Origin: Lysinibacillus sp. B2A1
Lineage (GTDB): Bacteria; Bacillota; Bacilli; Bacillales_A; Planococcaceae
Direction: 5' to 3'
DNA length: 64,000 bases
Assembly (NCBI GenBank): GCA_002973635.1
Contig: CP027224.1
Location: forward strand, 4,412,501-4,476,500
This document shows positions 5,229 through 56,318 of this stretch, piece by piece (the stretch's first letter is position 1; the number at the start of each line of letters is the position of its first letter). A program made the position numbers and the translations under genes. The notes beneath the pieces were generated by a model that saw nothing but the letters and a program-made list of their open reading frames with translations, was not told the origin of the DNA and did not search any database.

Positions 5229-6434
5229 TTATGCTATAATCGACAAACGATATTCTGATACATTGTTATAAAGCGTGTTTTCAGTTACATTTCGAACATA
5301 GCGAAGCCACTTATTTAATGAATCCACCTGTAATTGCGGTGCATATTTTACATAGATAACTAAGCTGTATAATTGAATTCGCTCTGTATATGTAACCTGG
5401 TCTGATAAATTTCGCTGGAATAAAGCCTCTACATCTATTAATTGGGCATCTGCCAATGAAATAAGCTGCTCAAACTTATTTAAAAAGAATGCCATTTCCT
5501 GCATCCAATCTGAAGCATTTAATTTAGCTGCCTTCAAATCAGTATCTAATAAGGCTATATCATTCTTTTTTAAAAATACATCTAGTATTTCTGTAGATGC
5601 GGATTGGCTTGCTACTTGATTTGCCAACATTGTTTTTATCAATTGATAAAAGGCAATATCATACTCTTTTTTGGCGTAACGCCACAATAAATCCGTCCAT
5701 TTAGTATCTATTTGGATAAAAAAATCCTCTACCTGCTTCATTGGGATTGCTTGTGATTCTTGAATATAGCCTTGTAAACGTGCCTTAAAAATTTCAAATA
5801 TTGTTAATGGCTTTCCACGCGCATTCATTTTAATATAGAGTGAGTCCTCCAAGTTGAATTTATCTAAATCAATAAAATAAAACTGGATTGTATCACTTTC
5901 TAAATGATTTAAAATGGGCTGCTGATATTTTTGATGAATAGCATCAAGCATCACAAGTGACGATTGTACTGTCGGGTCCATTAGCCAACGCTCAAAGAAA
6001 GTTGCTTCATTTTTTAGCTGCTGGCTAATCGTTTCCTTGTTAAAGTCTATTTTTTGAATCGTCGTTAAAAACTCAAAAAACTGCTTACTATGCTGTCTTG
6101 TTTCATAGGAAAATTTCTCAAATATTTGGTGATACTCTTTCATTTTATTTTCACGCAGCACCACATACCAATGTAATAAATATAATGTAGTTAGCCGCTG
6201 TTGCCCATCTAAAGGAGCAAAATGCTGTTCCTCATCTGTTGTGCCATATATAAAATCTAACAAAACAGGTTGGCGCTCATGTAAACTGCTAAACAATTGA
6301 TTTAAAAATTTTTCTCGCACTTCTATAGCTCTCGAATTATCCAAGCCTTGTACATAATCTCTTTGAATAATTGGAATAACAATTTTGTATGTATGAATCA
6401 ATTTCCAAAAAGTATATACTTCTGCTGTATTCAA
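5229..6434 (-). CDS. DUF262 (GmrS-like) protein, N-terminal part before an in-frame stop
   Basis: DUF262 (ParB-like nucleotide-binding, GmrSD N-terminal) domain. IPIIQRDYVQG near residue 20 and PLDGQQRLTTLYLL near residue 75 are the two family signatures; the QR and DGQQR residues bind and hydrolyse nucleotide in GmrSD-type type IV restriction proteins. The ORF can open at GTG 6446, but AGAGG abuts that codon; TTG at 6434 has the same site at nine bases, so I use it. It starts about 20 bases after the stop of the DUF262-DUF1524 gene, clearly one operon. Frame continues past TAA 5229-5231 into 4287-5228 (see that entry). Lacking the C-terminal half, this ~401-aa piece may be non-functional. 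Confidence 0.8.
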   Translation of the reverse strand: MNTAEVYTFWKLIHTYKIVIPIIQRDYVQGLDNSRAIEVREKFLNQLFSSLHERQPVLLDFIYGTTDEEQHFAPLDGQQRLTTLYLLHWYVVLRENKMKEYHQIFEKFSYETRQHSKQFFEFLTTIQKIDFNKETISQQLKNEATFFERWLMDPTVQSSLVMLDAIHQKYQQPILNHLESDTIQFYFIDLDKFNLEDSLYIKMNARGKPLTIFEIFKARLQGYIQESQAIPMKQVEDFFIQIDTKWTDLLWRYAKKEYDIAFYQLIKTMLANQVASQSASTEILDVFLKKNDIALLDTDLKAAKLNASDWMQEMAFFLNKFEQLISLADAQLIDVEALFQRNLSDQVTYTERIQLYSLVIYVKYAPQLQVDSLNKWLRYVRNVTENTLYNNVSEYRLSIIA

Positions 6435-6455
6435 ACTAGATGACACCTCTTTCGT

Positions 6456-8153
6456 TTATAATATCGATTGTAATTCTGTTTCAATTGCTTTTAAATACTC
6501 ATCACGGTCATTTTTAGACCAATAATTCATATTTTGAATGTTACTGCTATAATACTTTAAAAAAACATTCTTCGTACAAGGCGGAATATATGTCCCACTT
6601 CTATCGCGCAAAATAATTTCTTTACGTTTTATTGGGAAAATCGCATTTTTATAAGAGCGATTTGTTTGGCGATCTAACAGCGTTAAATTCGACAGCCCAT
6701 TGATATTAAAATTATCATCACTAAATAAGCTCTCCACTGTTAAAAGTAAGTCCTCAAAGCCAGTCGTTTCCTTCTGGGCAATAAAATCCTTCACCTTTTG
6801 TTGTAATGTCAGGTCTGTAATTAATCCTTCAAACTCTCCTAATAATGCATTTTGTGCTTCCTTTTCATTAGGTAGCTTACTTTGCAACGCATGAATATGT
6901 TCAATATCCCATTCCTCTGTTTTATAGCGTTCAAAATCAAAAAGCTGATTTGACTCTGAATTATTTTGCAATGTAAATATATTGAATAACAATAATGTAT
7001 TAGTAATTTCTTTTTTATTTTTTGTACAATCCAATTTCTCTAAGGTAATATTATGGAAATAACCTGCAATTTTATCTAGTAAAAAATGTTCAAATTGATC
7101 CTTATTCATCTTTAAGAATGCTTGAAATAATATTTTTAGTGATACACCCGTTGTTAATAAATACCCTACATAATGATAAAACATTCTGTTTTCATACCAT
7201 TCCAAAAGGGTCTGATACACATCAAAAATTCGCTTCCAAAGATTTTTAATTATCGTTTCCTTCGAAACGCCCTGTGCTATTTCAGCCTCCATGATTTCAT
7301 TAAAAACATGGAATGTATGATATTGATCCCATTGTCCTTCAATAGTATTTGTTAAGCCAACGACAAGCTCAAAAAGCCATTCAATTCGCGTAGAATATTG
7401 GTGTTTACTATTGTTTTGCAAAAAGAACCAAAATTTATCATTTTGTAGGCTGTATTCTATCTGATCCCATTGGTTCGATATTTCAAGCTGTTTTAACTGA
7501 AGATATTTTTCATCGCTATTGCTGTCAGCTAAATGAGTGCTACTTAAAAATAAAGCCTTAATCAACTCGGCATCATTCAATAGAATCTTTCCACTATTCG
7601 TACGAGAAAACAGCTCAATTGGATCTGTTTTCTCACCAATTTCATACCAGATTACCTTTACATTTGCCTTAAGAATTCCAGCAAATTCAGAAATATCATC
7701 CGCAAGCTTTTCTTCAATCCAAGCGTCAATTGTTTGATATGCCGTAAGCATATAATAATAATCGATATTATCAACATCTGTATCACTTTTCGTTGTAATA
7801 TTCTCTAAAAAATCTGCACTCTCCTCACGTGATTGATAACGCAGCTTATACGGCTCATTTTGTCGCTTCATATATGTTGTAAACACCTTTAATATTAAAT
7901 AAATGGTTGTTAAACGCTGTTGACCGTCGATGAGCTCCCACTGATTTTTCACCTTTTTCACTATCACAGGTTGTAGCCAATATATCTCATCACGTGATTG
8001 TTTTTGCAGCATAAATTCATACAGGTCCTCCAGTAATTCTTTTACCTGAATACTAGTCCATCTGTACCCTCTTTGATATGTTGGTATAAAAAATGAGCCT
8101 TCTAAATTCATTAACTCACGGATATTTTTACTAGTTAATAATACTTGCTGCAT
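6456..8153 (-). CDS. GmrSD-family DUF262-DUF1524 protein, 565 aa
   Basis: Two-domain protein of the GmrSD/BrxU type, which restricts phages with modified DNA. The N-terminal DUF262 domain shows IPTYQRGYRW (about residues 23-32) and LIDGQQRLTTIYLI (about 75-88). The C-terminal DUF1524 (HNH-like) domain shows EWDIEHIHALQ (about 413) and the signature LSNLTLLDRQTNRSYKN (about 488) with a following KRKEI. These are the nucleotidase and nuclease halves that couple NTP hydrolysis to cleavage. Start at 8153 has an ideal GGAGGAGGTG site. It has its own promoter (8220-8248) and follows the terminator of the dynamin operon, so it is transcribed separately. A second DUF262 gene follows directly, giving a tandem pair. 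Confidence 0.9.
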   Translation of the reverse strand: MQQVLLTSKNIRELMNLEGSFFIPTYQRGYRWTSIQVKELLEDLYEFMLQKQSRDEIYWLQPVIVKKVKNQWELIDGQQRLTTIYLILKVFTTYMKRQNEPYKLRYQSREESADFLENITTKSDTDVDNIDYYYMLTAYQTIDAWIEEKLADDISEFAGILKANVKVIWYEIGEKTDPIELFSRTNSGKILLNDAELIKALFLSSTHLADSNSDEKYLQLKQLEISNQWDQIEYSLQNDKFWFFLQNNSKHQYSTRIEWLFELVVGLTNTIEGQWDQYHTFHVFNEIMEAEIAQGVSKETIIKNLWKRIFDVYQTLLEWYENRMFYHYVGYLLTTGVSLKILFQAFLKMNKDQFEHFLLDKIAGYFHNITLEKLDCTKNKKEITNTLLLFNIFTLQNNSESNQLFDFERYKTEEWDIEHIHALQSKLPNEKEAQNALLGEFEGLITDLTLQQKVKDFIAQKETTGFEDLLLTVESLFSDDNFNINGLSNLTLLDRQTNRSYKNAIFPIKRKEIILRDRSGTYIPPCTKNVFLKYYSSNIQNMNYWSKNDRDEYLKAIETELQSIL

Positions 8154-8248: not shown

Positions 8249-8335
8249 AAAAAGTACCTTCATTTGATATGTCTATCATACCTGTATATGCTTCACTTTT
8301 ATTGACCTAGTTGATTACCAGTGCCTTTTTAAGCG

Positions 8336-8384
8336 AAAAAAAACCCCATAAGATTAACAGATTTAATTCTGTCAATCGTATGGG
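8336..8384 (-). terminator. Intrinsic terminator of the dynamin operon
   Basis: Long imperfect stem (CCCATAAGATTAACAG / CTGTCAATCGTATGGG); on the minus strand it is followed by eight consecutive U. It lies 54 bases after the last gene of the operon (stop at 8438) and separates it from the DUF262 genes. Confidence 0.85.
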
Positions 8385-8437
8385 AATTTCTATAATCTTC
8401 TGTTACGCTTATTATTTCTTTAGTTTTTGTCGAATCA

Positions 8438-9451
8438 CTAACTAGAAAATGATTCCACTAATTTCTTTTGAATTTTTAGTAGCTGTTGGCGTTCTACACT
8501 TTTCGAATCAGCAATTTGAGAAATTCCTTCTAGCAACGCTTTATTCATATTTTTCAGTTCGGTTAATTGCTTACTTAATGAAATTGTTGATTGTTCGCTT
8601 AATTTTCCTAGTTCTGTTTGAAGCTGTTCAACCTTCTCTACCATTGTAGAAGCATTATTCATTTGAGCATAAACTTTTTCATTGTATTTCTCCACTTGTG
8701 CTAACATGTTCGCTATAGAGACATCTAAATTCGTTGAAACAACTCCGAATTCATCAGCAATTTTTGCTACTACATGTTCATGAGTTAACGTAGACGTTTC
8801 AAAATGAGATTGAATAATATCTTGTAAATCCGCTAATTTTTCTAAATGCATTTCTAAATTGCGAGCCGTGTCTAACGCGTCTTGTTGATTAGTAGTAATC
8901 GCATCTTGTAGCATCGAAAGCTCATTTGGCATTGTATTTTGAATCGAAACTAATTCGTCCGTTATTTGCACAATATTTTTCAGCTCTTGAATCATTAAAA
9001 TCGAGACATTTTCTAAAACTTTATTGCCTTCTTCAATTTTTTCTTCCAATTGGCTAAAAGCTTGCTTCATATCTGACTGCTGCTTTGATACTGTTTGTTC
9101 TGTTTTTTCCATTTGTCCTACAATCGTAATCTGCAGTTGAGCAAATTCTTGCTTTAATTGTTGATTTAAAGCTATATTTCCTTCTTTATAAGTCTCTAAT
9201 TGCTGTTGTAGTTTGTTAGTGATTTCGTTGTTTGACACTTTCACCGCATCTTCCATAACTTTTAAACCTTGTTGTAAAGAAGCATTTGTCATTTCTCTTT
9301 GTTTTGTTAATGAATGCAGACCGACAATGCCGACTATAACAGCAAAAGCAAGAATGCCATAAGTAATCGCTGCATTATTGCTTAATGGGGTCCATAATAG
9401 GCCAACACTACCTGCTGCGACAGGTAGTAAATATGTGTGTAATTTATTCAT
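8438..9451 (-). CDS. Membrane-anchored coiled-coil protein, ~337 aa
   Basis: Two hydrophobic segments near the N-terminus (about residues 6-22 and 29-47) are followed by about 280 residues of Gln/Glu/Leu/Lys-rich heptad-like coiled coil, resembling the signalling stalk of chemoreceptors or apolipoprotein-like helices but without a recognisable receptor tip. The open frame begins with TTG at 9466, but AAGGAG lies six bases before the ATG at 9451, which I take as the start. Last gene of the operon containing three dynamins; the stop of the 97-aa gene lies 17 bases upstream of it. Inferred role: a membrane scaffold or partner for the GTPases. The exact function is unknown. Confidence 0.75.
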   Translation of the reverse strand: MNKLHTYLLPVAAGSVGLLWTPLSNNAAITYGILAFAVIVGIVGLHSLTKQREMTNASLQQGLKVMEDAVKVSNNEITNKLQQQLETYKEGNIALNQQLKQEFAQLQITIVGQMEKTEQTVSKQQSDMKQAFSQLEEKIEEGNKVLENVSILMIQELKNIVQITDELVSIQNTMPNELSMLQDAITTNQQDALDTARNLEMHLEKLADLQDIIQSHFETSTLTHEHVVAKIADEFGVVSTNLDVSIANMLAQVEKYNEKVYAQMNNASTMVEKVEQLQTELGKLSEQSTISLSKQLTELKNMNKALLEGISQIADSKSVERQQLLKIQKKLVESFSS

Positions 9452-9468
9452 ACCTAGCTCCTTCAAGG

Positions 9469-9762
9469 CTATTTTAACAAGTGAATATATTGTTTCATCA
9501 ATGAAATAGTCGTATCACTAATTTTTTCTTGCTTTAATGATTTTTCTATCTGTTGTAGTACTTTACTTTGCTCTTTACTTTTTGTTGCCTGTAATAGCTC
9601 AGCTACATAAAGCGTTTTTTCATAAATGGAGTATTTTTCAATTTTGGCTAAATAGCTTTTCGTATCGTCGAAATGCTTTGGTTTGTCTTTCGCAATACGC
9701 TGCAATAGTAAGTGACATAATACAAAATAATTATTTTCAAGCTCAACTAATTCGTTTGTCAC
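9469..9762 (-). CDS. Small helical protein, 97 aa, in dynamin operon
   Basis: No family recognised. Predicted to be all-helical, Lys/Gln/Leu-rich, soluble. It overlaps the end of the 272-aa gene by 20 bases and starts with GTG at 9762 just after a GGGG ribosome site, typical of translational coupling; this makes it a true member of the operon. Possible role as a small adaptor between the GTPases and the coiled-coil membrane protein is only inference. Confidence 0.65.
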   Translation of the reverse strand: MTNELVELENNYFVLCHLLLQRIAKDKPKHFDDTKSYLAKIEKYSIYEKTLYVAELLQATKSKEQSKVLQQIEKSLKQEKISDTTISLMKQYIHLLK

Positions 9763-10549
9763 GGTTTCCCCACACTTTCAATTCTTTAATTATTTCTTCA
9801 ATAGTTGCGTTGTTATGCTTTATTTTTAAAAATGCTGTAATTTCTCTTAATAAAACAGGCATCCATTGGGGGAATGATGGATGATTTTGGAGCCAAAATG
9901 TATTTAACATATGCACTGCGATTTTATCTAAAATAAGGTTCTTTTCCTTTTCTTCATTGGAATCCTTCATCGTCATTAGCTGTAAAATATATTGCTTTGG
10001 TAGCTCAGGAGTTAATTGTTGCTTTGACTGAGCTATTGTCATATTCCTTGTTACCACTACATCATCTAATAAATAATGATAAGAAAAATCATCAACTAAA
10101 AATTGATTAATATTCGGCATGTGCAATAAGGCAAGAATATTTTCAGTAGCCACGACATTGCAAATTTTTTGCTCAATAAAAAGGCTACGCGACCATAATG
10201 GTAAACGGTGCTCTGTAAATAGGGTTAGCATCTTATTTTTTGGCAACATCTGTAATGTATTTGGTGGATAATAGGTAATATCCATCCACTGTAGTACTGG
10301 GTGTGGATATTTTGCACTTGTAAGGGTTACGACATCCTTTAAAAGCTCTACAGATTGGAATAAATCTGTCAGTGTATAAACAACCTGTGGCTCACCAGTA
10401 ATGTAGACGTGACGTTTTGTCGCCACGCTACCATTTACTGCTGAAGTGTTCCCAATTTCTCGCATTGCTTTCCATAAAGAAGGTTCATTGGAAACAGGAA
10501 TTTTATCAATTTGCTTGGCAAGCCATAACAGCTCATTGTGCAACTGCAT
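9743..10549 (-). CDS. Hypothetical protein, ~268 aa, in dynamin operon
   Basis: No recognised domain. The segment HVYITGEPQVVYTLTDLF followed by alternating strands and helices is vaguely like a GTPase fold that lacks a P-loop (no GxxxxGKS/T), so a degenerate pseudo-GTPase is one speculation. The ORF opens at 10561, but GGTGA lies five bases before the fifth codon, so ATG 10549 is preferred. It overlaps the end of the third dynamin gene by 17 bases and the next gene by 20, showing coupled translation of a conserved unit. Confidence 0.7.
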   Translation of the reverse strand: MQLHNELLWLAKQIDKIPVSNEPSLWKAMREIGNTSAVNGSVATKRHVYITGEPQVVYTLTDLFQSVELLKDVVTLTSAKYPHPVLQWMDITYYPPNTLQMLPKNKMLTLFTEHRLPLWSRSLFIEQKICNVVATENILALLHMPNINQFLVDDFSYHYLLDDVVVTRNMTIAQSKQQLTPELPKQYILQLMTMKDSNEEKEKNLILDKIAVHMLNTFWLQNHPSFPQWMPVLLREITAFLKIKHNNATIEEIIKELKVWGNRDKRIS

Positions 10550-12821
10550 ATTGCTCACCATTTACAAGGGATTCAATCGTATTTAAATAAGCACGATTTT
10601 CATCAATCAACTGCTGAATTTTTGCTGTGTCGCTTTCTTTCATTTGTTCGACATCTGTAATTTGCTGCTCCCAATGTTGTAGCTGTTCTTTTAGTTGCCT
10701 TGGTAGCATCTGATCTAAAACGTTTAATAAATTTGCAAATTCTGTTTTAAACCATAGTGTTAAATATTGCTCTTCATCCGTTAACACTTGCTCTAATTGG
10801 CTGTTAATTTCCTTTAGAAGGTGCTCATTTTGTATGCGATTTGTTTCTTCTTCGTAGTTTTCTTCAAGCTTCTTTAGCTTGTGTTTCATCGCTTGTTCTA
10901 CTTGCTCGCGTTTTAATGTTAACTCTTTACGAATCCGTTCATTGTTTGCTGCTTGGTTTTCTAATGCATCTAATTGATGAAGCTTATCATCACGTAGCGT
11001 TTCAAGCTCCTTTTTTCGTTCAAAGAATTGACGACGATGCTGCATATCCTCTTTCTTTGGCTGGCTACGAGTCTCATCTATTTGTTGTCCGATTTTTTTC
11101 GCTATTGTTTGCACTGGACTTGTAAACTGGTCCAATGCTTTCGCTGCCTTTAAGACCGTATTATCTGAGCCATTTCCAGGTTTCTTTGATGCTTCAGCAG
11201 CAATGGAAATACCTGCAATAATCGCCTTTTCTGCAGCCTCTGAAGCTACTTTTTTCGCTGCTGTCTTCGCTGCAGTTTTAGTCGCTTCTTTTGCAACAAC
11301 TTTCCCACCTACTTGAGCAGCTGCGGATGTCCCTGCTGTTGCTACTGCTAAAGCTACTGTCAATGCCATATCACCTACAAATCCAATGGCCGAAGCAATT
11401 TTTTCACTCTTATTTGGATCAAATGTTTCATCTAAAATATATTCTGGCACGAATTTCTCCACTGCCTGCTCAGTTAGGTTTTCAATTTCTAACAATAAGC
11501 GTTCACGTTGTTCATCATTGCCACTACTTTCTGGTAATAACTGTAACTGAGTTTTAACAGCATTGATTTTAGCAAAGGCTCTTTCACGTTCGGCTTCATA
11601 TTGATTTTGAAGAACTGACAAATTAGGAACAGTCATTTTGAAATTAAATGAAATTTCATCAGGAGATTTCAATTCAATTTTACCCTCATCCCCGACAATT
11701 TTTTGAATGCGACCATATAATGTCCCAAACACTTCATTTCTAGTTGTCACAATTTCGTTTTCTATTTTTAAGGTTAATTCATCAATAGATAAATTTTCTT
11801 TCACTAAATTTTTCAGCTTCACTTCAAGCAGCTGATAGCATTTTTGCATATATTGCTTCATTTCTTCTTCCGTTTTAAACATTATTTCAAGTAATGCTTC
11901 CATTTGATTTGACACTTCAATTTGTGCATCTGCATACTGCATTTGAACCGCTTGCTTTTGTAATGCAGAATCACGTTCATCTGAAGATAAAGCTTTTTCA
12001 TAAAACTCAACTTGTTGTACAATACGTTCCTGCTCACGCATTAGAAGTTGCTTTAATGCGTACTGTAGTCGATGTTCTTTGAGCTGAGCTAGTTCATTTT
12101 TTAATGGCAAAATGAATTCTAAATACAACTTATGCATGTTATAGCCTGTTTTTGCACTTACTGCGTAAACGGGGAAATCCCTACCTAGTTGTTCCTTTAA
12201 TTCCGCCGTTACTCGTTGTTGCATTTCTTCAATCGTAATGCCTTGTGCTTCGTCAATGCGATCCACTTTATTAATGACAAAATATAGATTCGGCTGATAG
12301 CGTAAAATATGCTTCAAATATACAATATCTTCTAGTGTTAACCCTTGCCATGGCATCACATATAATGCTGCATCTGATGTAATTAATGCTTGTTCTGATG
12401 CATCAATATGAGCTTTATATTTCGTATTTCGGCCAGGTGTATCAATAAATATAATCTCCTTCAACCAACTTGGAGTTTGCCGTTCAATCACAATGCTCTC
12501 GATATCATTGACAGAAACACCTGCTGTTAATGAATGTAATTTTATGACATTCAACTCTGATATCATGCCATTAAAATGATACGCTTCAATGTGGTCTGTT
12601 TCCCCACCTTTAATATATGTAGGAATAGCTGTCGTTTCATTTGTATGAGTTGGCAATAAATCTTGATGACCGATTAAAGCATTAATTAAAGCCGATTTTC
12701 CAACACTAAATGAACCAAAAACACCTAATGTCATTTGCTTATTATTTGCTTGCTGTTCTAATGCTTCAATAAATTGCATTTCCGTTTTATGTAGTGGAAG
12801 TTGCTTCATTTTTTGTAACAT
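10533..12821 (-). CDS. Dynamin-like GTPase 3, 762 aa
   Basis: Large GTPase of the bacterial dynamin-like family. G1 P-loop GSFSVGKSA (residues 36-44), G2-like threonines in NETTAIPTY, G3 FIDTPGRNT, G4 INKVDRID. Two long coiled-coil regions follow. Between them, about residues 475-560, lies a hydrophobic, Ala/Gly-rich segment (IGFVGDMALTVALAVATAG) that looks like a membrane-inserting paddle or double amphipathic helix, a feature the other two dynamins here lack. Dynamin-like proteins tubulate, fuse or stabilise membranes; relatives DynA and LeoABC are linked to phage tolerance or vesicle traffic. AGGAGGG precedes ATG 12821. It ends overlapping the next gene. Confidence 0.92.
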   Translation of the reverse strand: MLQKMKQLPLHKTEMQFIEALEQQANNKQMTLGVFGSFSVGKSALINALIGHQDLLPTHTNETTAIPTYIKGGETDHIEAYHFNGMISELNVIKLHSLTAGVSVNDIESIVIERQTPSWLKEIIFIDTPGRNTKYKAHIDASEQALITSDAALYVMPWQGLTLEDIVYLKHILRYQPNLYFVINKVDRIDEAQGITIEEMQQRVTAELKEQLGRDFPVYAVSAKTGYNMHKLYLEFILPLKNELAQLKEHRLQYALKQLLMREQERIVQQVEFYEKALSSDERDSALQKQAVQMQYADAQIEVSNQMEALLEIMFKTEEEMKQYMQKCYQLLEVKLKNLVKENLSIDELTLKIENEIVTTRNEVFGTLYGRIQKIVGDEGKIELKSPDEISFNFKMTVPNLSVLQNQYEAERERAFAKINAVKTQLQLLPESSGNDEQRERLLLEIENLTEQAVEKFVPEYILDETFDPNKSEKIASAIGFVGDMALTVALAVATAGTSAAAQVGGKVVAKEATKTAAKTAAKKVASEAAEKAIIAGISIAAEASKKPGNGSDNTVLKAAKALDQFTSPVQTIAKKIGQQIDETRSQPKKEDMQHRRQFFERKKELETLRDDKLHQLDALENQAANNERIRKELTLKREQVEQAMKHKLKKLEENYEEETNRIQNEHLLKEINSQLEQVLTDEEQYLTLWFKTEFANLLNVLDQMLPRQLKEQLQHWEQQITDVEQMKESDTAKIQQLIDENRAYLNTIESLVNGEQYAVAQ

Positions 12822-12833
12822 TTTTGTTCCCTC

Positions 12834-15074
12834 CTAGATCATAGCTGTCATTAATAGAATTTTCTCTTCTTCAATACGGTGACGAATTTCTTCGATTTCT
12901 TTTGCTAAATTTTGGCGAGCTTCTTGAGAATTAGCCATTTGCTCAGAAAGCTGAGTTGCACGCTTCACCACATCTTCTAATAGCCCATCTTGCTTTTTAA
13001 TATGCTCTTCAATTTTTTGCTCCGCTAGCTTTAAAGCATCCAGCTCACGTAAAAATTCACGGTATTCGCGTTTTGTTGTATTTAACAGCATCTCTAATTG
13101 ACGTATCACTTTACGCTTTTCGAGATTTAATTGTTGGTCCGAATTATTTAGTTGCTCATTTAAGCGTTGCATAATAGCCATGTTTTTTTGCTCGCGCATA
13201 TCGCGACGTTCCTCCCGAATTTCTTCATGAGAACTATAAGCTGTTGATACGCCAGCTAAGCTTAATTGCAAGTCTTTTTCTTCGTTTAACTTTTGTGCTG
13301 CTACAGCTTTTTTTTGTTTTGCTAGTTCACGTTTTTGTGCAATTAGTTGGTCGTATTTCTCATTGTTTTCTTGAATAAATCCTTCTTTATCAAAGAAAAA
13401 TCTACGTTTTTTAATAACACCATGTTTTTCAATCATTTGTGGTGTACTTTGAATGAGCATTTCTTGGAAGCGTATATCTTCTTGGAATTCGCGCTCCACC
13501 ATCGCTTTTTCTTCACGCTTATAACGTAGCTCAGTCTCTAATTGAATTTTCTTTTCTAAAACTGCTCGTTCTCCTTTTAAATCCTGCTCTTTTTCTTCAA
13601 ACTGTTTTGTTACTTCCTGTAAAATTTCTTCATAGCTTTTACCAACAGCCTTTTTCATTTCTACTTGTAAATGAATGCCCGATGCTTGATGACTCGCTTC
13701 AACTTTAACGTCAAATTCGTTTAATTCTTTGCGCATCGTCCTATTCAGCTCTTCTGAAAGATCATAAATTTTCGAATCAAACAGCGCTTGGTAGCCTGTA
13801 TTGAAAATTTCCATTTCGTCATTAACTTGATCTTCAAGCTCCTCAATTGTAACAATGCCATTGATTGCTGTTTTCGTCATATCAACTAGACGGTCAAAAT
13901 CTTCATTGAATTGCTTTTCGTTGGCACGAATCGTATCATTAAATAAATTTTTCAAGCGGATAATTTCCTTTTTTAGCTGCATTTTGCGTAGCTCAGCCTC
14001 ATCCTTTGCTAACTTGTGCATACGCTTTAACTCTTCTAAATCCTCACTATTTTCAAGGTTTTTCTGATATTGCTCAAATTCTGCGATTAATTGACTATAA
14101 AATTGATCAATTGCAGTGAATGGCACTTGTAAAAAGTCGTTTGTTTTCTCACCATCAAATAAATACTGCTCTAAACGCTCCTCGAATAATAAAAACTTCG
14201 ATTCCTGTAAAAGCGTTACAGGGTTTATATCCTGCCAATGCTTCGTTATAACATCCTGGTCGCGGGCCTTTAACGCTTGGAGAGCACTTAGTGGATAAAT
14301 GACTGCTCGACTTTCCTCGATTTGTTGATAGTTATTTTCGCGTAATGCCTTTTCCAGTTGGTCTTTTACTTCCTGTACTTGATCCGCTGGTACACCGTCT
14401 AAGCGATTCGCTACGAAGAAAATGCGATCAATGGAATCCGATAAGTCACGTAAAAATTTAATTTCTGTTAGCTTACCTGGCTGTTCCATATTGAACAGTA
14501 AAATACTTGCATTCGATTTTTTTATTTGTGTTTTCGTAATTTTTTCGTGCTCTGGATTTAACGCTTGTAATCCTGGCGTATCCACTAGCACGACCCCATT
14601 TTCTAAATAAGGGGAGTCGACATATAAATCGACGTGATGAATTTGATTACTTACATTTACTTTACTACTCATCTCCGTCACATAGTCTGGTAGCTCTAAA
14701 TAAGGAATTTCAATTTCTTTTCCATCTTTGAAAACTACTTTCGCCACTGGCTCACCAGTGTGATTTGACAGCTCATTTAAATGACGAATGAAATTGACCG
14801 TTGCTGTTGTTGGTGTTACTTTTGACGGTAAAATTTCCCGCTGCAATAAAGCGTTAATAAACGTTGATTTCCCTGTAGAAAACTCCCCTACAACAACAAT
14901 TTCAAAGCGTTCACTTTCCCAATTTTTTTGTAGCGCCTGTAAGTTTTCATTTATTTGATGAATGGATAACACTTCATGATATTTTTCGTTTAGTCGATTT
15001 CCTAGGGCAATAGCATTTTCAAAGCGCCCTTTTAGTTCTTCTTTTTTTTGGATAAATTGCTTTCTAATATCCAT
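12834..15074 (-). CDS. Dynamin-like GTPase 2, 746 aa
   Basis: P-loop GEFSTGKST (residues 63-71), G2 threonines in TPTTATVNF, G3 LVDTPGLQA (about 160), G4 ANRLDGV (about 216). The remaining 450 residues are nearly continuous charged coiled coil (stalk), with no obvious transmembrane segment. The motif set is closest to the DynA/BDLP GEFSxGKST type. Twelve bases separate it from dynamin 3 and from dynamin 1, so the three are co-transcribed. A GGGGG ribosome site precedes ATG 15074. Bacterial dynamins commonly act as unlike pairs, so hetero-oligomers with its neighbours are likely. Confidence 0.92.
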   Translation of the reverse strand: MDIRKQFIQKKEELKGRFENAIALGNRLNEKYHEVLSIHQINENLQALQKNWESERFEIVVVGEFSTGKSTFINALLQREILPSKVTPTTATVNFIRHLNELSNHTGEPVAKVVFKDGKEIEIPYLELPDYVTEMSSKVNVSNQIHHVDLYVDSPYLENGVVLVDTPGLQALNPEHEKITKTQIKKSNASILLFNMEQPGKLTEIKFLRDLSDSIDRIFFVANRLDGVPADQVQEVKDQLEKALRENNYQQIEESRAVIYPLSALQALKARDQDVITKHWQDINPVTLLQESKFLLFEERLEQYLFDGEKTNDFLQVPFTAIDQFYSQLIAEFEQYQKNLENSEDLEELKRMHKLAKDEAELRKMQLKKEIIRLKNLFNDTIRANEKQFNEDFDRLVDMTKTAINGIVTIEELEDQVNDEMEIFNTGYQALFDSKIYDLSEELNRTMRKELNEFDVKVEASHQASGIHLQVEMKKAVGKSYEEILQEVTKQFEEKEQDLKGERAVLEKKIQLETELRYKREEKAMVEREFQEDIRFQEMLIQSTPQMIEKHGVIKKRRFFFDKEGFIQENNEKYDQLIAQKRELAKQKKAVAAQKLNEEKDLQLSLAGVSTAYSSHEEIREERRDMREQKNMAIMQRLNEQLNNSDQQLNLEKRKVIRQLEMLLNTTKREYREFLRELDALKLAEQKIEEHIKKQDGLLEDVVKRATQLSEQMANSQEARQNLAKEIEEIRHRIEEEKILLMTAMI

Positions 15075-15086
15075 TTTGTACCCCCG

Positions 15087-17147
15087 TTATAAAACTTTTA
15101 ATGTTGCAATTGCTTGATTTTTTGATTTTCGGACGAATTGTTTATAGTTTTCTTCAATCGTTTGAATGTGTTCGTAATAACGCTCCTCTTGTGTAGCAGA
15201 CAACAGTCTCCATTCGGATTTAATGTCATTGATGCGCTCACTATGAAGTTTTTTCACAATTTCAGATTGATTGCTTACAGTACTGTATAGCGCACCTAAT
15301 AGCTCTACACTGTACGCTTGCTCTGCATCCTCAAGCACTTCTAGTTGCTTCTCAATGTTTTTCTTTTGTTGCATTTCGCTGTTGAGTCGGCTCGTATACC
15401 TTTGCTCAATTTGTCGTAATTGATTTTTATATCTCATATGGATTTCGCTCATTTTCTTGTCCCAATGCTCTTGCTCAGAATAGTCATAACCGATAAACTC
15501 TTCTTTTTTCCAAAATAGAACCCCTTTTGTTCGATGCATAGCGCGAGGCTCTGGTTTTTTACCAAGTCGATTTTGTTCTCGTTGTTGACTTGAGCGAATC
15601 AGGATTTCTTCGCTATTTTTATCTGAACGTAATCTTTGTAAATCCTGCTCTTTATTTCTAAGCTGGCTTTGATATTGGTTATACTTTTGATCTGCATCGG
15701 CAATTTTGGCATTATACTGTTCAAAATCTTTAAAGTCTACAGAAAAACTTAGTGGCTTTAGTTGAATTTTCTTTAAAATTAAATCAAATTCATCCCAACA
15801 AATAGCCACATTTGTTTCAAGCTTTTTTAGCATGTCACTAAATTGTGTATCTTGCTGCTGCACCTGTTGTTCAACAGCCTTTACAAATCGTTGACCAAAT
15901 AAATCAAGATTTTTATCCCACTGCTTATAAATTTTTTCAACAGCATTTAAATGCTGTACATACGCTGTTTTTAAGGTATCCACTTTGGATAAGCTCGTCA
16001 TTTGCTGGCGAATATAAAGCTGGAATTGCTGATATTGCTGACGAACTGCCTTTAATATGTCATTACCTTGGGCTAGTAGTTGATTTTCATATTGGGTATT
16101 TAGCTGATAGACCGCATTGGTACTTTGCTTTAATAGTGCTATTCCGTATTGCTCAACTTCTAAATATTCTAATTCCGTAATAGCTGTTAGTCGTTCAAGT
16201 CGTCTTAAACGATCAGCTTCAGCTGCTTCTTTAGCTTGCTGTTGCTGCTGCTCGTAGCTTTCAACTTCATTGAGTAACTCTAAAAAATCATGCTCAATAG
16301 AACGAATTTCGGCATTTTGATATTCCTTCGTTACCATGTATGTATGAAGCATTTTTTCTAAAGTGGGCATATTCGACTGCAGTAACAACTGTTCATTTCG
16401 CTGTTGTTTACCTCTTAACGCCTCAATAGATGATATACCAACAATTTCGATGTTTTTAATGGCATCAATTTGTACAATTTTCTTTTTTACTTCTGCTTCA
16501 ACTTCAAGCCATTGTTCCTGCGTAAGTTGATCCACATGGGTACCAACTAAAAATACTTTCTTTTTATAGGCAGCATACTCCTCGATAATCGCATAGTCCT
16601 CAGCATCTAAGCCCTTCGTTCCCATAAACAAATAGATGATAGCTGATGAAGATTTTAACTGCTCTCTTGTTGTCTGGAACGCGTTTGCTGTTAATGAGTT
16701 TGCTCCTGGTGTATCGATTAATATGAGCTCGTTATTTAAAAAATGAGCCGGCCAATACACATCTACATATTGAATGGAATCAGTAATTTCTTCTCCTTGA
16801 AACGTAGTATACTTTTGCAAATCGTTAACAGTTGTTAATGGTAATGAATCTTGTTGTCCGTTCTTTAAAGTTAAAACAACCTTTGCATCCTGCGCTAAGT
16901 CACAATGACGGATGCGCGTTAAAATCTTCGTCGATTCAACTTTTCTTGTTGCTAAAATTTCTTGTCCTAATAGCGCATTTAATAAAGCAGATTTTCCGAC
17001 TGAAAATTGACCGACAACGGCAATACTACTTTCCATTGCCTGTAGTCGTTTTTCAATAAATTTCAGCTCTTCTCCCCAAAAAATATCATCACTGTATTTT
17101 TTTAAATAAGCGCTCACTTTTTGTTGCAGCTTCTGTTTTTGATTCAA
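15087..17147 (-). CDS. Dynamin-like GTPase 1, ~686 aa
   Basis: P-loop GQFSVGKSA (about residues 46-54), G3 LIDTPGANS, G4 THVDQL (Thr-His instead of the usual Asn/Thr-Lys), then a Gln-rich coiled-coil stalk. The frame can open at TTG 17186, adjacent to the stop of the zinc-ribbon gene, but AAGGAAGG lies eight bases before TTG 17147, so that codon is the more likely start. The basic-aromatic block around RTKGVLFWKKEEFIGYDY recalls RRFFFDKEGFI in dynamin 2 at the same place, so the two share a stalk-tip element. First of three tandem dynamins. Confidence 0.9.
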   Translation of the reverse strand: MNQKQKLQQKVSAYLKKYSDDIFWGEELKFIEKRLQAMESSIAVVGQFSVGKSALLNALLGQEILATRKVESTKILTRIRHCDLAQDAKVVLTLKNGQQDSLPLTTVNDLQKYTTFQGEEITDSIQYVDVYWPAHFLNNELILIDTPGANSLTANAFQTTREQLKSSSAIIYLFMGTKGLDAEDYAIIEEYAAYKKKVFLVGTHVDQLTQEQWLEVEAEVKKKIVQIDAIKNIEIVGISSIEALRGKQQRNEQLLLQSNMPTLEKMLHTYMVTKEYQNAEIRSIEHDFLELLNEVESYEQQQQQAKEAAEADRLRRLERLTAITELEYLEVEQYGIALLKQSTNAVYQLNTQYENQLLAQGNDILKAVRQQYQQFQLYIRQQMTSLSKVDTLKTAYVQHLNAVEKIYKQWDKNLDLFGQRFVKAVEQQVQQQDTQFSDMLKKLETNVAICWDEFDLILKKIQLKPLSFSVDFKDFEQYNAKIADADQKYNQYQSQLRNKEQDLQRLRSDKNSEEILIRSSQQREQNRLGKKPEPRAMHRTKGVLFWKKEEFIGYDYSEQEHWDKKMSEIHMRYKNQLRQIEQRYTSRLNSEMQQKKNIEKQLEVLEDAEQAYSVELLGALYSTVSNQSEIVKKLHSERINDIKSEWRLLSATQEERYYEHIQTIEENYKQFVRKSKNQAIATLKVL

Positions 17148-17186
17148 ATGACTAACCTTCCTTATACTCAAATTCGTGCCAAACAA

Positions 17187-17360
17187 TTAGTCCTTAAATG
17201 TTTTAATAATTCGATGCAAAAGCGATCCTCTACATTTTCTACAAATGGAATGCTGGAGCTTTATTAAATCTTCTGATGTTAAAGCATCCCCAAAGAACTC
17301 AGTTTTAATATAACCCTTACAGTTTTTGCAATAAATTGCTCGGCTCATTGAAATTGGCAT
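17187..17360 (-). CDS. Mini zinc-ribbon protein, 57 aa
   Basis: Two CxxC knuckles, C11-x2-C14 and C40-x2-C43, predict one zinc site; no other domain. The ORF could start at GTG 17369, but AGGGGTGG sits five bases before ATG 17360, which is preferred. It lies between the WYL regulator and the first dynamin gene. Such small ribbons often bind nucleic acid or act as adaptors; which applies is unknown. Confidence 0.7.
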   Translation of the reverse strand: MPISMSRAIYCKNCKGYIKTEFFGDALTSEDLIKLQHSICRKCRGSLLHRIIKTFKD

Positions 17361-17409
17361 TCTGTCCACCCCTTAAAATATTCTTATCTTTAGTATAAAG
17401 ATCTTGATG

Positions 17410-17422
17410 GACAGAATCTGTC
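17410..17422. promoter_or_regulatory. 13-bp palindrome, candidate operator
   Basis: GACAGA-A-TCTGTC, a perfect inverted repeat in the 77-base gap between the WYL regulator and the zinc-ribbon gene. A half-site-like CTGTCC recurs at 17362-17367 by the zinc-ribbon start, and a TATACT -10-like box lies at 17392-17397 on the minus strand. WYL regulators such as BrxR and CapW bind inverted repeats near defence operons; that this is the site is inference. Confidence 0.35.
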
Positions 17423-17437
17423 TTTCATATGGTTAAA

Positions 17438-18415
17438 TTAAGAGTAACGCATAAGCATTTTTTCTAATGTTTCCTTCATTGATTGACGGAATAATATTGG
17501 ACTAATCACCTCAATTGCTTCCTTTTGGCTTAGCAACCACATTTGAATCCCTTCCCCATAAACTTCAGCACTAATAAGGTAACCCTTTTGTGGATGTTGC
17601 TTAATAACGGTAGCTGTTGGAAGTCGATCAAGGACAGCCTGAATTGATGCCCCATTAAAATAAAATTGAATGTGCAATAAATTGCCTGTATACATAAATT
17701 GAACACGTTTACGAAACTCGCCTTCCTCAAAACGGTCACTATATTTCACCTTAAATCGAATATTGAGTGATTTCATAGCAGTTATACGATCGATTCGATA
17801 GATTATAGGAAAATCAATATCTGTATTCACTTGATATGCAATTAAGTAAAAATAATACTCAGAAAAAAGAATCCCTACTGGCTGTAGTTGGTGTCTTTTT
17901 GCTATAGCGTCCATCTCTTTTTTATAATAAATCTCTATTTCTTGTTGTTGATGAATCGCCATTGCAACTTCCCATAATAGTGGCAATACGGATTGATTAT
18001 TATGTAAATTAACATAAAGCTGCTTTTCATTATATATAATCGATTCGATTAAAGCTTTGTTATCTTCTGATGCAAAGGATACTAATTTATTTAGTAACTG
18101 ATTGATCTCTTCTTTTGGAACAGCCCTTGCTTCTAATAGTATCTTTGAAATAGCTAATATCTCCTCAGCCAACAAATAGGTAGGTTGATTTTGCTGCAGG
18201 TAATATACATTATGCTTTTTGTCATATAGTAATTTTTGTTCATCACCTAGTGTATGTAGGAAATTTTTTATTTCATTAAAATCACGCTGAATCGTTCTAT
18301 CTGAAACGTGAAACTGTAAAGCTAGCTCATTTTTAGCAAGCTTTTTGCCATTTAACAATAGATTATAAATCATAAGTATCCGATAATTTTGTGTTGTGGC
18401 AGGTATTTTATTCAT
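17438..18415 (-). CDS. WYL-domain transcriptional regulator, 325 aa
   Basis: N-terminal winged HTH of the DeoR/HTH_11 type (about residues 9-55, SDRTIQRDFNEIKNFL), then a WYL domain (about 145-215, with the variant FYLIAYQV in place of the W-Y-L core) and a C-terminal WCX-like region. WYL proteins sense ligands, probably nucleotides or nucleic acid, and many repress phage-defence operons. The frame opens at ATG 18430, but GGTGA lies four bases before ATG 18415, so the shorter start is used. Same strand and immediately upstream of the dynamin genes, so it is likely the autoregulated controller of the operon. Confidence 0.88.
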   Translation of the reverse strand: MNKIPATTQNYRILMIYNLLLNGKKLAKNELALQFHVSDRTIQRDFNEIKNFLHTLGDEQKLLYDKKHNVYYLQQNQPTYLLAEEILAISKILLEARAVPKEEINQLLNKLVSFASEDNKALIESIIYNEKQLYVNLHNNQSVLPLLWEVAMAIHQQQEIEIYYKKEMDAIAKRHQLQPVGILFSEYYFYLIAYQVNTDIDFPIIYRIDRITAMKSLNIRFKVKYSDRFEEGEFRKRVQFMYTGNLLHIQFYFNGASIQAVLDRLPTATVIKQHPQKGYLISAEVYGEGIQMWLLSQKEAIEVISPILFRQSMKETLEKMLMRYS

Positions 18416-18774
18416 AATGTCACCAACCATTTTTTGTTCTTAAATCACTATTATTCTACCATATTTTTCCCTATAAAAACTTTGTTAATTTATTGTTTCC
18501 TCACAACAACTTCCTTCGATTAATATTCACCCAAAGTTAATTCTCACTAGCATTTATTCATCATTCATATCCGACAAAGCATAGCCTTAGAAGCATTTTC
18601 GTATTAGAATAACCAGATACAGAAACTATTAAAGCCTATTTTCTAAGTGCCCCACTCAAATTATGCTCAAAATTTATACATGCGAAGAAGGAAGACTAAA
18701 GAACAAACCATGGTTAATAGTGGCTACTGCTGGAAATTGAAATCTGATGTAAAATAACAGTTGGAATCTCATAA
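18416..18774. other. Intergenic stretch upstream of WYL operon
   Basis: AT-rich, no ORF of note. It must hold the promoter of the minus-strand WYL operon; TAGAATAATA about 40 bases upstream of the start is a possible -10, but no convincing -35 pairs with it. Confidence 0.4.
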
Positions 18775-20535: not shown

Positions 20536-20636
20536 CCAAGTTCCTCCCTTTTTAGTTTTGATATTGTCATAAGTTTCGGAACAGTTTCTGAAAGAATCCC
20601 CGTCCTACGCTAGATTGAGGTTAACACGACGTTTAT

Positions 20637-20697
20637 TATTAGTGTTAATAATACTAATGGATATACCAAAATTTTCATACATACCTTCACCTTAAAT
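20637..20697. repeat. ~60-bp direct repeat downstream of intact SLH gene (copy 2)
   Basis: Counterpart of 19079-19139; it overlaps the last few bases of the 1040-aa gene. Confidence 0.55.
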
Positions 20698-43038: not shown

Positions 43039-43039
43039 T

Positions 43040-45153: not shown

Positions 45154-45154
45154 A

Positions 45155-54572: not shown

Positions 54573-54678
54573 AAACCATTAGAGGGGAATATCGCCAAAT
54601 AAGATTATATATTATTACTTAGAGGTGTATTCCTCTCCTTTTATATCTTGCCCCCGCAATTATATAGGAGGTATTTAT

Positions 54679-55848: not shown

Positions 55849-55865
55849 CTACGTTTTTGACTACG
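55844..55865. repeat. Direct repeats (TT)TTTGACTACG near right end
   Basis: Two copies, the first overlapping the integrase stop codon; the same motif is repeated three times inside the left end (34585-34812). Confidence 0.5.
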
Positions 55866-55904
55866 TTTGAATACAATCAGTTGAAATTAGATGAAAATAA
55901 AAAA

Positions 55905-55937
55905 TGTCAAAACCCTTGATAAATAAGGGTTTTGACA
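55905..55937. terminator. Terminator after integrase 2
   Basis: TGTCAAAACCCTT / AAGGGTTTTGACA, a 13-bp perfect stem between the integrase and the 3' end of ssrA, able to stop transcription from both. Confidence 0.85.
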
Positions 55938-55963
55938 TTTGTTGAAATCATTTGATTTCTTAA

Positions 55964-55986
55964 AATGGAGACGGCGGGAGTCGAAC
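55964..55986. other. Attachment site at the ssrA 3' end
   Basis: Right junction of the island; 23 bases identical with 34514-34536. It covers the 3' acceptor strand and part of the T-arm of tmRNA, which stays functional after insertion. Confidence 0.88.
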
Positions 55987-56318
55987 CCGCGTCCAGAAAC
56001 TCCAATACTTCAGCTTCTACGCGTGTAGTTTGCCTATTTACGATTCACGTAGCATTATGCCGACAAACAGGCGTCCTGTACGCTAACCTGGAAATCTCTT
56101 GTCGGTGACTCAGGTGGCACCATCGACCGTATCCCACTAAAGTTGGGCCCCACGTTCTCTACATGGGCGATAGAGAGGCAGAGCGCTTACGAGCTTACGC
56201 TGCGAAAGCTAAGTTTTGTTGTTTGCCAGTTATTATATAACTTCCGTTGATGACGGAGCCGAGACCTCCGACGCGCGACCAAAGCTTGAACCATCCCTGT
56301 CGAATCCGTAACGTCCCC
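55965..56318 (-). ncRNA. ssrA: tmRNA (ssrA)
   Basis: Rescues stalled ribosomes together with SmpB. The 5' end GGGGACGTTACGGATTCGAC (56318 downward) pairs with the 3' end CGTCTCC to form the acceptor stem; GGTTCGACTCCCG forms the T-arm. The tag frame (56227-56195) reads GKQQNLAFAA then TAA, so with the alanine on tmRNA the tag is AGKQQNLAFAA, with the expected protease-recognised C-terminus. Pseudoknot-forming segments lie downstream of it. The 3' CCA is not encoded: after TCTCCA the sequence goes on TTTTAAG, probably because island insertion replaced it. The promoter TTGAAC-17-TATAAT lies at 56430-56458. Confidence 0.95.

What the first reader, a model, noticed from the sequence alone, without database searches (positions are those of the whole stretch)
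8336..18415. WYL-controlled operon with three different dynamin-like GTPases and accessory proteins
Seen: eight tightly packed minus-strand genes with overlaps or gaps mostly under 20 bases, bounded by a WYL regulator and a strong terminator. Three encode full dynamin-type GTPases (P-loops GQFSVGKSA, GEFSTGKST, GSFSVGKSA) whose sequences differ strongly; one has a membrane-inserting segment, and the last gene encodes a two-TM coiled-coil protein. Known: DynA and LeoABC dynamins are linked to membrane protection or vesicles, and WYL proteins (BrxR, CapW) control phage defence. Inference: a membrane-remodelling or membrane-repair anti-phage or stress system with a hetero-trimeric dynamin and dedicated scaffold. 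The combination with the mini zinc ribbon, 268-aa and 97-aa proteins is not a system I know by name.
Basis: partly seen in the sequence, partly recalled or inferred. Interest (0 to 1): 0.85.

Follow-up and report, generated by a model that had tools for sequence, protein, structure and literature searches.

The report
Three-dynamin membrane operon in defence hotspot
A rare, mobile six-gene bacterial operon encodes three different membrane-shaping GTPases plus three helper proteins, one of which may be a dead GTPase; it sits among anti-virus genes and is probably a new, untested variant of dynamin-based defence.

The parts
17438..18430 (-). HTH-WYL transcriptional regulator (330 aa; a later ATG at 18415 is possible); not part of the conserved type I core
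   Evidence: Pfam WYL 34.6 bits over cut-off 21.8, WCX 20.8 bits just under 23.9; 46-47% identical to WYL-type proteins upstream of two type II triple-dynamin operons
17187..17369 (-). Zn60, mini zinc-ribbon-like protein (two CxxC pairs by eye, 60 aa); not conserved in other loci
   Evidence: ORF; no Pfam match over cut-off; no homologue in the six other type I loci apart from an 18-residue match at E 0.094 in L021
15087..17186 (-). Dyn1, dynamin-like GTPase, 699 aa, no hydrophobic paddle; predicted beta-hairpin tip
   Evidence: Dynamin_N 73.6 bits; model mean pLDDT 79, pTM 0.48; Foldseek best 2j69 BDLP E 8.8e-17; G1 and G3 residues and the G4 Asp invariant in 51 of 51 aligned
12834..15074 (-). 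Dyn2, dynamin-like GTPase, 746 aa, no hydrophobic paddle; aromatic/basic tip segment
   Evidence: Dynamin_N 95.3 bits; PDB profile search best 2j68 BDLP E 4.8e-17; tip aromatic cluster in 6 of 7 loci
10533..12821 (-). Dyn3, dynamin-like GTPase, 762 aa, Gly/Ala-rich hydrophobic paddle around residues 475-505
   Evidence: Dynamin_N 56.1 bits; hydropathy maximum 1.60-2.03 at that place in 7 of 7 type I loci, alignment
9743..10561 (-). p272 (268-272 aa), candidate pseudo-GTPase: alpha/beta domain 48-172 without P-loop or DxPG, then a helical bundle 189-265
9469..9762 (-). p97, small accessory protein, 97 aa
   Evidence: Same position in 7 of 7 type I loci; in the three loci outside the profile E 3.2e-15, 5.9e-19 and 2.2e-6
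8438..9466 (-). CC342, N-terminal hydrophobic hairpin (two TM by eye) plus long coiled coil, conserved ERxxx(L/M)xxQ tail
   Evidence: Hydropathy 1.76-2.61 and tail motif in 7 of 7; in the three loci outside the profile E 2.9e-20, 8.5e-29 and 4.7e-6
8333..8386 (-). Rho-independent terminator of the operon
   Evidence: Fold -21.9 kcal/mol, z -7.0, run of eight U
5229..8153 (-). Neighbouring GmrSD/DUF262-type gene pair (defence context, separate unit)
   Evidence: Pfam GmrSD_N 106.7 and 74.7 bits, cut-off 33.2
54625..56318 (.). Tyrosine integrase (+) beside tmRNA (-), right edge of the variable hotspot that holds the operon
   Evidence: Phage_integrase 105.8 bits; tmRNA 55966-56318; this end is the main part shared with relatives

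Best explanation
The core Dyn1-Dyn2-Dyn3-p272-p97-CC342 is a horizontally moving, defence-island membrane machine, most likely anti-phage. Shown by sequence: three GTPases with intact nucleotide motifs, one membrane-paddle subunit, one hydrophobic-hairpin coiled-coil protein, one motif-less protein with a G-domain-like model, all inherited together. Inferred: CC342 sits in the inner membrane as anchor or sensor; p272 acts as a GTP-independent pseudo-GTPase that docks on or caps the dynamin G domains; p97 is an adaptor; on membrane damage or depolarisation by phage, Dyn3 inserts its paddle and recruits Dyn1 and Dyn2, whose aromatic/basic tips bind lipid, building a heterotypic coat that stiffens, seals or excises membrane, so that infection is blocked or lysis and phage release are delayed (the DynA outcome), or, less likely, kills the cell. 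In the window a WYL regulator probably keeps it repressed.
For: Six genes in the same order and strand in 7 of 7 type I loci; protein distances correlate between genes, r 0.31-0.90 over 15 gene pairs; Dyn3 occurs in exactly the same 4 of 261 family genomes as p272. Dyn1, Dyn2 and Dyn3 form separate clades for the seven loci. Patchy distribution: 4 of 261 family genomes, 3 of 398 class genomes at E <= 1e-60 (two of them are the 2 of 19). Hotspot: pdxK-to-rnr interval about 58 kb here and 27-59 kb in the 12 relatives that have both on one contig, with Gabija in G001 and type II restriction in G018. Neighbours: GmrSD pair, CRISPR array of 21 repeats ending 0.4 kb upstream of Dyn1 in Kurthia, type I restriction in L037 and a PDC-S26-type nuclease in L038. 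Foldseek puts Dyn1 with BDLP and the Campylobacter DLP pair. DynA of B. subtilis delays phage lysis and needs its GTPase motifs for it (PMC8844932, abstract and Discussion read). Recurrence: type II operons with three dynamins plus a hydrophobic-hairpin coiled coil in 3 of 3 loci.
Against: No phenotype is known. Three of 7 loci (L019, L020, L021) have no convincing defence neighbour; L019's strong hit (DinG, E 8.6e-89) I take as housekeeping. Raw PADLOC hits are noisy: 4 of 10 control proteins also hit at E <= 1e-5, one a plausible AbiL protein. hhalign finds no sequence link of p272 to Dyn1 or Dyn3, and Foldseek is not significant for p272. In L038 the Dyn3 paddle (1.60) is no more hydrophobic than the G-domain core of one Dyn1 (1.59). 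The WYL subfamily is common in the genus. No core protein has a full-length match to a PADLOC model. In another study dynamin genes of an island were not active against the phages tested (PMC12595487 passages).
Confidence: 0.58

Rival explanations
1. Envelope-stress system: the machine repairs or shields the membrane against antimicrobial peptides, antibiotics or other pore-formers of competitors, as proposed for IniA and for DynA against antibiotics; its presence in islands reflects general horizontal transfer, not phage defence.
For: Dynamin fold and paddle; DynA has membrane surveillance roles beyond phages and IniA is found at antibiotic-induced lesions (PMC8844932 abstract and Discussion); three of 7 loci lack convincing defence neighbours.
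Against: Four of 7 loci have restriction, CRISPR or nuclease neighbours; very patchy distribution.
Confidence: 0.22
2. Abortive infection: on phage sensing the dynamins deform or rupture the cell's own membrane and kill the infected cell.
For: Regulation by a WYL protein would fit a system that must be kept off (CapW precedent, PMC9122588, search listing only); multi-gene membrane effectors are common in defence (recalled).
Against: No toxin-like domain was matched by Pfam in the core proteins; the solved Campylobacter pair tethers and tubulates membranes and DynA is thought to stabilise them (PMC6104087 passages; PMC8844932).
Confidence: 0.13
3. Mobile-element service function: vesicle release, plasmid or element transfer or partition aided by dynamins, with no role in immunity.
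For: LeoA and LeoB deletions lowered vesicle release by about half in E. coli (PMC4159319 passages); type II and a third kind are on two plasmids of one Lysinibacillus capsici strain; integrase next to the hotspot.
Against: The same core also sits in loci where no mobility gene was seen by eye in the stretch read (L020, L021).
Confidence: 0.07

Closest known systems
LeoABC / Eleos dynamin systems
   Same: Operon of different dynamin-like GTPases; PADLOC LeoBC matches Dyn2 (E 3.5e-18) and LeoA matches Dyn3 (E 3e-15) over part of their length.
   Different: LeoA plus split LeoBC, that is two dynamins (PMC4159319 passages), instead of three; no p272, p97 or CC342 known there; NCBIfam LeoA model scores 17.6 bits against a cut-off of 325 for Dyn2 and is not reported for Dyn1 or Dyn3.
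DynA of Bacillus (tandem dynamin)
   Same: Dynamin-type GTPases in Bacilli; phage-lysis delay is the nearest demonstrated function (PMC8844932).
   Different: DynA is one fused two-dynamin protein, and a separate gene with a 1226-residue open frame and two dynamin domains exists in this genome; the three proteins score 40-64 bits against NCBIfam's DynA cut-off of 1600.
Cj-DLP1/DLP2 and BDLP
   Same: Same fold for Dyn1: Foldseek E 8.8e-17 (BDLP) and 1.4e-15 (Cj-DLP pair); heterotypic pairing as working principle (PMC6104087 passages).
   Different: Pairs or single proteins: two, not three, dynamins, and another accessory gene.
BrxR / CapW WYL regulators of defence systems
   Same: HTH-WYL protein upstream of an island operon; 48% of BrxR homologues lie by known defence systems (PMC9122601 passages).
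   Different: Here a subfamily common in the window's genus, and not shown to control anything; the word dynamin does not occur in that paper's main text.

Membership tests
Dynamin superfamily (Dyn1, Dyn2, Dyn3) | Dynamin-type G domain with G1, G3 and G4 motifs | tested here: met
   Dynamin_N over cut-off in all three; G1 and DTPG in 7 of 7 type I loci; G4-like motif found by regular expression in 7 of 7 for Dyn2 and Dyn3 and 6 of 7 for Dyn1; in 51 Dyn1 sequences the G4 Asp is invariant
Dynamin superfamily (Dyn1, Dyn2, Dyn3) | Neck and long helical stalk after the G domain | tested here: met
   Dyn1 model, Foldseek to BDLP; Dyn2 and Dyn3 were not modelled
Dynamin superfamily (Dyn1, Dyn2, Dyn3) | GTP hydrolysis and membrane remodelling | not testable with these tools
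   Biochemistry needed
LeoABC / Eleos | Composition LeoA plus LeoBC (two dynamins) | tested here: not met
   Three dynamins plus three accessory genes in 7 of 7 loci
LeoABC / Eleos | Match over the cut-off of the LeoA family model | tested here: not met
   NCBIfam NF041922 17.6 bits for Dyn2, cut-off 325; PADLOC LeoA and LeoBC matches partial
DynA | Match over the cut-off of NCBIfam NF052648; fused two-dynamin chain | tested here: not met
   40.5, 59.1 and 64.3 bits against 1600; single-dynamin chains
TRAFAC GTPase fold, inactive (p272) | G-domain fold | tested here: inconclusive
TRAFAC GTPase fold, inactive (p272) | Walker A P-loop and DxPG for nucleotide binding | tested here: not met
   No GxxxxGK[ST] or [DE]xPG in 7 of 7 loci; this is why it is called a pseudo-GTPase candidate
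Anti-phage defence system | Lies in a defence island / integration hotspot | tested here: met
   For the window's locus. Over loci: defence neighbours in 4 of 7; enrichment not established, control of 10 proteins only
Anti-phage defence system | Reduces phage plating or spread | not testable with these tools
   Experiment needed
BrxR / CapW-type WYL regulators | HTH and WYL domains | tested here: met
   WYL 34.6 (cut-off 21.8) and HTH_DeoR 22.9 (cut-off 21) bits; WCX 20.8, under its cut-off 23.9
BrxR / CapW-type WYL regulators | Represses the neighbouring operon | not testable with these tools
   Reporter assay needed

The most novel reading that the evidence does not exclude
Triple-dynamin operons are a so far unnamed class of bacterial immune machine: three obligately different dynamins, a degenerate fourth GTPase that regulates them and a membrane-anchored coiled-coil scaffold assemble a layered heterotypic coat on membranes breached by phage, functionally like GBP or Mx coats of animal cells (recalled analogy). 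At least three architectures (type I here, type II on pFN9A and two chromosomes, a third on pFN9B) arose or diverged, and a WYL regulator subfamily is repeatedly recruited to switch dynamin GTPases.
Probability: 0.3. Interest if true: 0.87.

Novelty: new variant of a known kind. Interest (0 to 1): 0.74.

Why it matters
Bacterial dynamins are described as acting mostly in pairs (PMC4159319 and PMC6104087 passages); why GTPase heterotypy is needed is open. A compact, conserved operon with three dynamins with intact motifs, a likely pseudo-GTPase and a fixed membrane scaffold makes that question directly testable, and would add a multi-subunit dynamin coat to bacterial immunity, with a parallel to the multi-GTPase coats of animal innate immunity (recalled). 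PADLOC's models hit it only partly, as LeoBC and LeoA.

Tried and rejected
Led nowhere: the first genome-contig scan and a viral-contig scan with p272, and a viral-contig scan with Dyn1, returned no relatives; a sample of the order of G429 gave 0 of 397, although named proteins show that the family exists in the Bacillus cereus group, so that sample only says it is rare. Fold search of p272 against viral proteins gave nothing significant. Profile comparison of p272 with Dyn1, with Dyn3 and with the type II 390-aa protein gave nothing, so p272 as a pseudo-GTPase rests on the model alone. The type II 390-aa protein has a degenerate P-loop-like stretch near its start, seen by eye only, and no profile match to Dyn1. 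CC342 against the type II coiled-coil protein gave P 2e-5, but over coiled coil, which can inflate such scores.

Considered and rejected: phage-borne operon (one match, over a third of Dyn1, among 50,697 phage records at E <= 1e-8); housekeeping operon (4 of 261); fusion or split copy of DynA; dependence on the Zn60 gene; a WYL regulator specific to dynamins (24 of 32 genus genomes, the window's own included, match at E <= 1e-50, the others at 36-45% identity; of five neighbourhoods of WYL homologues reached by WYL searches and read, two have a dynamin-type GTPase and three do not, and two of these three are orthologous). The Bacillus velezensis plasmid hit is a single long DynA-like gene.

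Counting caveats: the genes of L037 and L038 given to PADLOC were picked because they looked like defence genes; searches took near neighbours. The control had 10 proteins from 5 stretches. One search scored only the 7,995 candidates sharing most words. A10 used 47 of the 84 family rows. The Dyn2 search at E <= 1e-40 hit 8 of 261 family genomes: the 4 type I ones, 2 type II ones and 2 that match in the G domain only. Dyn2 and Dyn3 were not modelled (two structure jobs per session). Literature: 10 searches of an open-access library, of which I saw the listed rows only; the original Eleos paper (recalled) was not seen. Papers opened: PMC8844932 (abstract, Discussion), PMC4159319, PMC6104087, PMC9122601, PMC11811056, PMC12595487, PMC10482375 (passages), PMC7159879 (searched for two terms, none found).
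Full report
What is there. The region holds eight minus-strand genes from a WYL regulator (17438-18430) to a coiled-coil gene with a hydrophobic N-terminal hairpin (8438-9466), followed by a strong terminator. The three large genes encode dynamin-type GTPases over Pfam's cut-off, each with its own form of the G1 motif and all with DTPG. Dyn1 folds, in a model of mean pLDDT 79 and pTM 0.48, as a bacterial dynamin whose nearest solved relatives are BDLP and the Campylobacter DLP pair. Dyn2's profile finds the same solved proteins by sequence. Dyn3 has the hydrophobic, Gly/Ala-rich paddle expected of a membrane-inserting dynamin in 7 of 7 loci, hydropathy maximum 1.60-2.03; the weakest, L038, is no higher than the G-domain core of one Dyn1, 1.59. 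Dyn1 and Dyn2 instead have tip segments with aromatic and basic residues. In Dyn1 the tip is 18% aromatic against 8% in the stalk and 19% against 16% basic, over 51 sequences, and it is a beta hairpin in the model; in Dyn2 the aromatic cluster is seen in 6 of 7 loci, not in L038. That these tips bind lipid is inference.

The conserved unit is six genes. Searches with p272 and Dyn1 gave seven distinct loci, and all carry Dyn1-Dyn2-Dyn3-p272-p97-CC342 in this order on one strand: the window, Kurthia huakuii (L012/L018), Lysinibacillus antri (L013/L021), Metalysinibacillus jejuensis (L014/L019), Bacillus sp. V3B (L020) and two genomes of one genus, G325 (L037) and G339 (L038), unnamed but by the names probably Exiguobacterium. 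For the three loci outside the profiles (L020, L037, L038) the accessory genes still match: p97 at E 3.2e-15, 5.9e-19 and 2.2e-6, CC342 at 2.9e-20, 8.5e-29 and 4.7e-6, p272 at 1.2e-20, 8.2e-83 and 1.9e-20. Gene junctions run from 61 bases of overlap to 19 bases of gap. Pairwise identities are 25-45% for Dyn1, 34-59% for Dyn2, 29-47% for Dyn3, 15-41% for p272, 13-34% for p97 and 14-27% for CC342, with distances that correlate between genes (r 0.31-0.90 over 15 gene pairs, 21 distances each). In a G-domain tree the seven Dyn1, seven Dyn2 and seven Dyn3 each fall together, support 100/99, 99/92 and 100/100, so the triplication is older than these loci. Dyn1 is a discrete family among the 7,995 candidates scored: 84 protein clusters at E <= 7.3e-170, then a gap to 5e-28. 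The WYL and Zn60 genes do not recur in the other six type I loci.

Distribution and place. p272 is in 4 of 261 genomes of the family, and Dyn3 in exactly those 4. Dyn1 at E <= 1e-60 is in 3 of 398 sampled genomes of the class, the window's own included, in 2 of 19 of G325's genus, the same two as, and in 0 of 397 sampled from one order. Of 136 pattern hits in the contigs of one genome for each of 84,980 species, 9 encoded a relative of Dyn1, and 4 of these are type I loci; the pattern step misses diverged members. In the window's genome the operon lies between a pdxK-like gene (named by eye) and the ssrA/rnr end of a hotspot. Of 25 genus genomes, 17 match the pdxK-like protein and 24 match RNase R. 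Besides the window's own genome, where the distance is about 58 kb, 12 of the other 16 have both on one contig, 27-59 kb apart; in 4 they are on different contigs. Of 10 relatives compared at the DNA level over about 20 kb, 9 share the tmRNA, the integrase beside it or both, one of them (L045) also two stretches of about 0.5 kb at 49.7-54.1 kb of the window; matches at 33.4-34.5 kb are the second integrase. The tenth, G001, shares nothing, but its stretch does not include the tmRNA. None shares any DNA with the operon. In the same interval G001 carries Gabija, G018 a type II restriction enzyme with a methyltransferase, G020 a methyltransferase with a HerA-like ATPase. The window's own interval holds a LlaMI-like restriction enzyme, a C5 methyltransferase, a PDC-M26A-like gene and a GmrSD pair.

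Defence neighbours of the seven type I loci: GmrSD pair (window), a 21-repeat CRISPR array ending 0.4 kb before Dyn1 (Kurthia), HsdS/HsdR and an Mrr-type PDC-S02 gene (L037), a PDC-S26/PDDEXK_4 gene (L038). In L019, L020 and L021 the near genes gave nothing convincing: L019 has a DinG-type helicase (E 8.6e-89) that I take as housekeeping, a protein with a weak mad2 hit and a TnpB-like protein that hits Cas12f; L021 a response regulator with a weak CARF hit. In the control 4 of 10 proteins hit PADLOC at E <= 1e-5, none below 1e-60. So the association is 4 of 7 with a weak control.

Related kinds. A plasmid of Lysinibacillus capsici (pFN9A) has three adjacent dynamin genes followed by 389-, 581- and 89-aa proteins; two unnamed family genomes (L071, L072), found with the Dyn2 profile, carry the same six with 54-73% dynamin identity. 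The 581-aa protein is again a coiled coil with a hydrophobic N-terminal hairpin. Between type I and type II the dynamins are very distant, so this is a second kind rather than a copy. Plasmid pFN9B of the same strain has a third kind: dynamins of 999, 641 and 574 aa plus a 93-aa protein. In 2 of 3 type II loci, the chromosomal ones, a WYL-type gene lies directly upstream (L071) or two small genes upstream (L072), 46-47% identical to the window's WYL (E 8.7e-102 and 6.4e-108; another WYL-like protein of the genus, chosen by eye, gives 25%, E 1e-9); pFN9A has a transposase there. Against specificity, 24 of 32 genomes of the genus match the WYL protein at E <= 1e-50, apart from the window's own gene at 36-45% identity, and the orthologous pair in G000 and G001 (L086, L085) has no dynamin beside it. 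But the best genus homologue, in G016 (L087), precedes an operon whose 702-aa protein matches BDLP at E 8.3e-17, and in Eubacterium eligens the WYL gene precedes a 608-aa 'dynamin family protein'; on the lactococcal plasmid pNP40 it precedes a 406-aa protein resembling the E. eligens 394-aa partner by eye, and a 486-aa protein without a P-loop.

How it most likely works. See Best explanation. Steps shown: gene content, motifs, co-inheritance, patchy distribution, island context of the window's copy. Steps inferred: complex formation, membrane anchoring by CC342, p272 as regulator, WYL repression, phage trigger and outcome. A DynA variant with both G1 lysines changed is as phage-sensitive as the deletion (PMC8844932, Discussion); the LeoABC and Cj-DLP1/2 papers argue that bacterial dynamins work as pairs (passages). 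On the other side, dynamin genes of a Pseudomonas island were not active against the phages tested (PMC12595487 passages). A survey of the Bacillus cereus group merged 'Dynamins' and 'Eleos' calls because they were often found as couples (PMC11811056 passages); some of those could be type I operons, since PADLOC's LeoBC and LeoA models hit Dyn2 and Dyn3 here, but I did not test that.

Novelty. In the rows listed by ten searches of the open-access library I saw no description of a three-dynamin operon or of a WYL-dynamin link (0 papers hold both 'dynamin' and 'WYL domain'). Papers outside that library, and rows not listed, were not seen. I file it as a new variant of a known kind (bacterial dynamin systems), not as a member of Eleos or DynA.

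Noticed in passing
window 17345-17425 (-): Inverted repeat/hairpin with a 12-bp outer stem spanning the WYL-Zn60 gap and the Zn60 ribosome-binding site and start (-19.8 kcal/mol, z -2.45, 6 of 200 shuffles as good); possible WYL operator or translational switch.
   Followed up: partly
window 5229-8153 (-): Two adjacent GmrSD_N (DUF262) proteins; no GmrSD_C match was reported for the 405-aa one.
   Followed up: partly
window 35312-39038 (-): Overlapping pair: DUF2357/PDDEXK_7 nuclease and a protein matching PADLOC PDC-M26A at E 1.4e-49; candidate two-gene defence unit.
   Followed up: no
window 40007-46545: LlaMI-like type II restriction enzyme (41184-41993), C5 methyltransferase (45340-46545), HNH and HhH-GPD genes.
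   Followed up: no
window 54625-56318 and the same site in relatives: ssrA integration hotspot: integrase beside tmRNA, different cargo in relatives, including Gabija beside Tn7-like genes (the latter by eye) in G001 (L046). In some relatives (for example G002, G007) the tmRNA lies 13-14 kb from rnr, so cargo may sit on that side too.
   Followed up: partly
window 19370-23809 (-): SLH protein with Listeria-Bacteroides repeats (20687-23809), followed by short in-line ORFs, one SLH-like by eye (19370-20500), that look like remains of another such gene.
   Followed up: no
L018:8182-9584: CRISPR array of 21 repeats directly upstream of the Kurthia operon; by eye no cas gene in the stretch read.
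   Followed up: no
L069:1948-8896 (plasmid pFN9B): Third kind of triple-dynamin operon (999, 641 and 574 aa plus 93 aa); a phenicol efflux gene is annotated 1.8 kb downstream of it.
   Followed up: partly
L087:6147-13201: WYL-led operon with 451-, 328-, 702- (dynamin-type, BDLP E 8.3e-17), 261- and 264-aa ORFs in another genome of the genus; the last one reaches the end of the stretch.
   Followed up: partly
L084:5932-10786 and L083:5908-9495: WYL followed by a 394/406-aa protein and then a dynamin-type GTPase (E. eligens) or a 486-aa protein without P-loop (plasmid pNP40, known from recall for phage resistance); possible related systems.
   Followed up: partly
L055:4648-6521: An arbitrarily chosen control stretch of the same genome holds a likely AbiL-type pair (AbiLii hit E 1.1e-25 for the second gene; the first by eye).
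   Followed up: no
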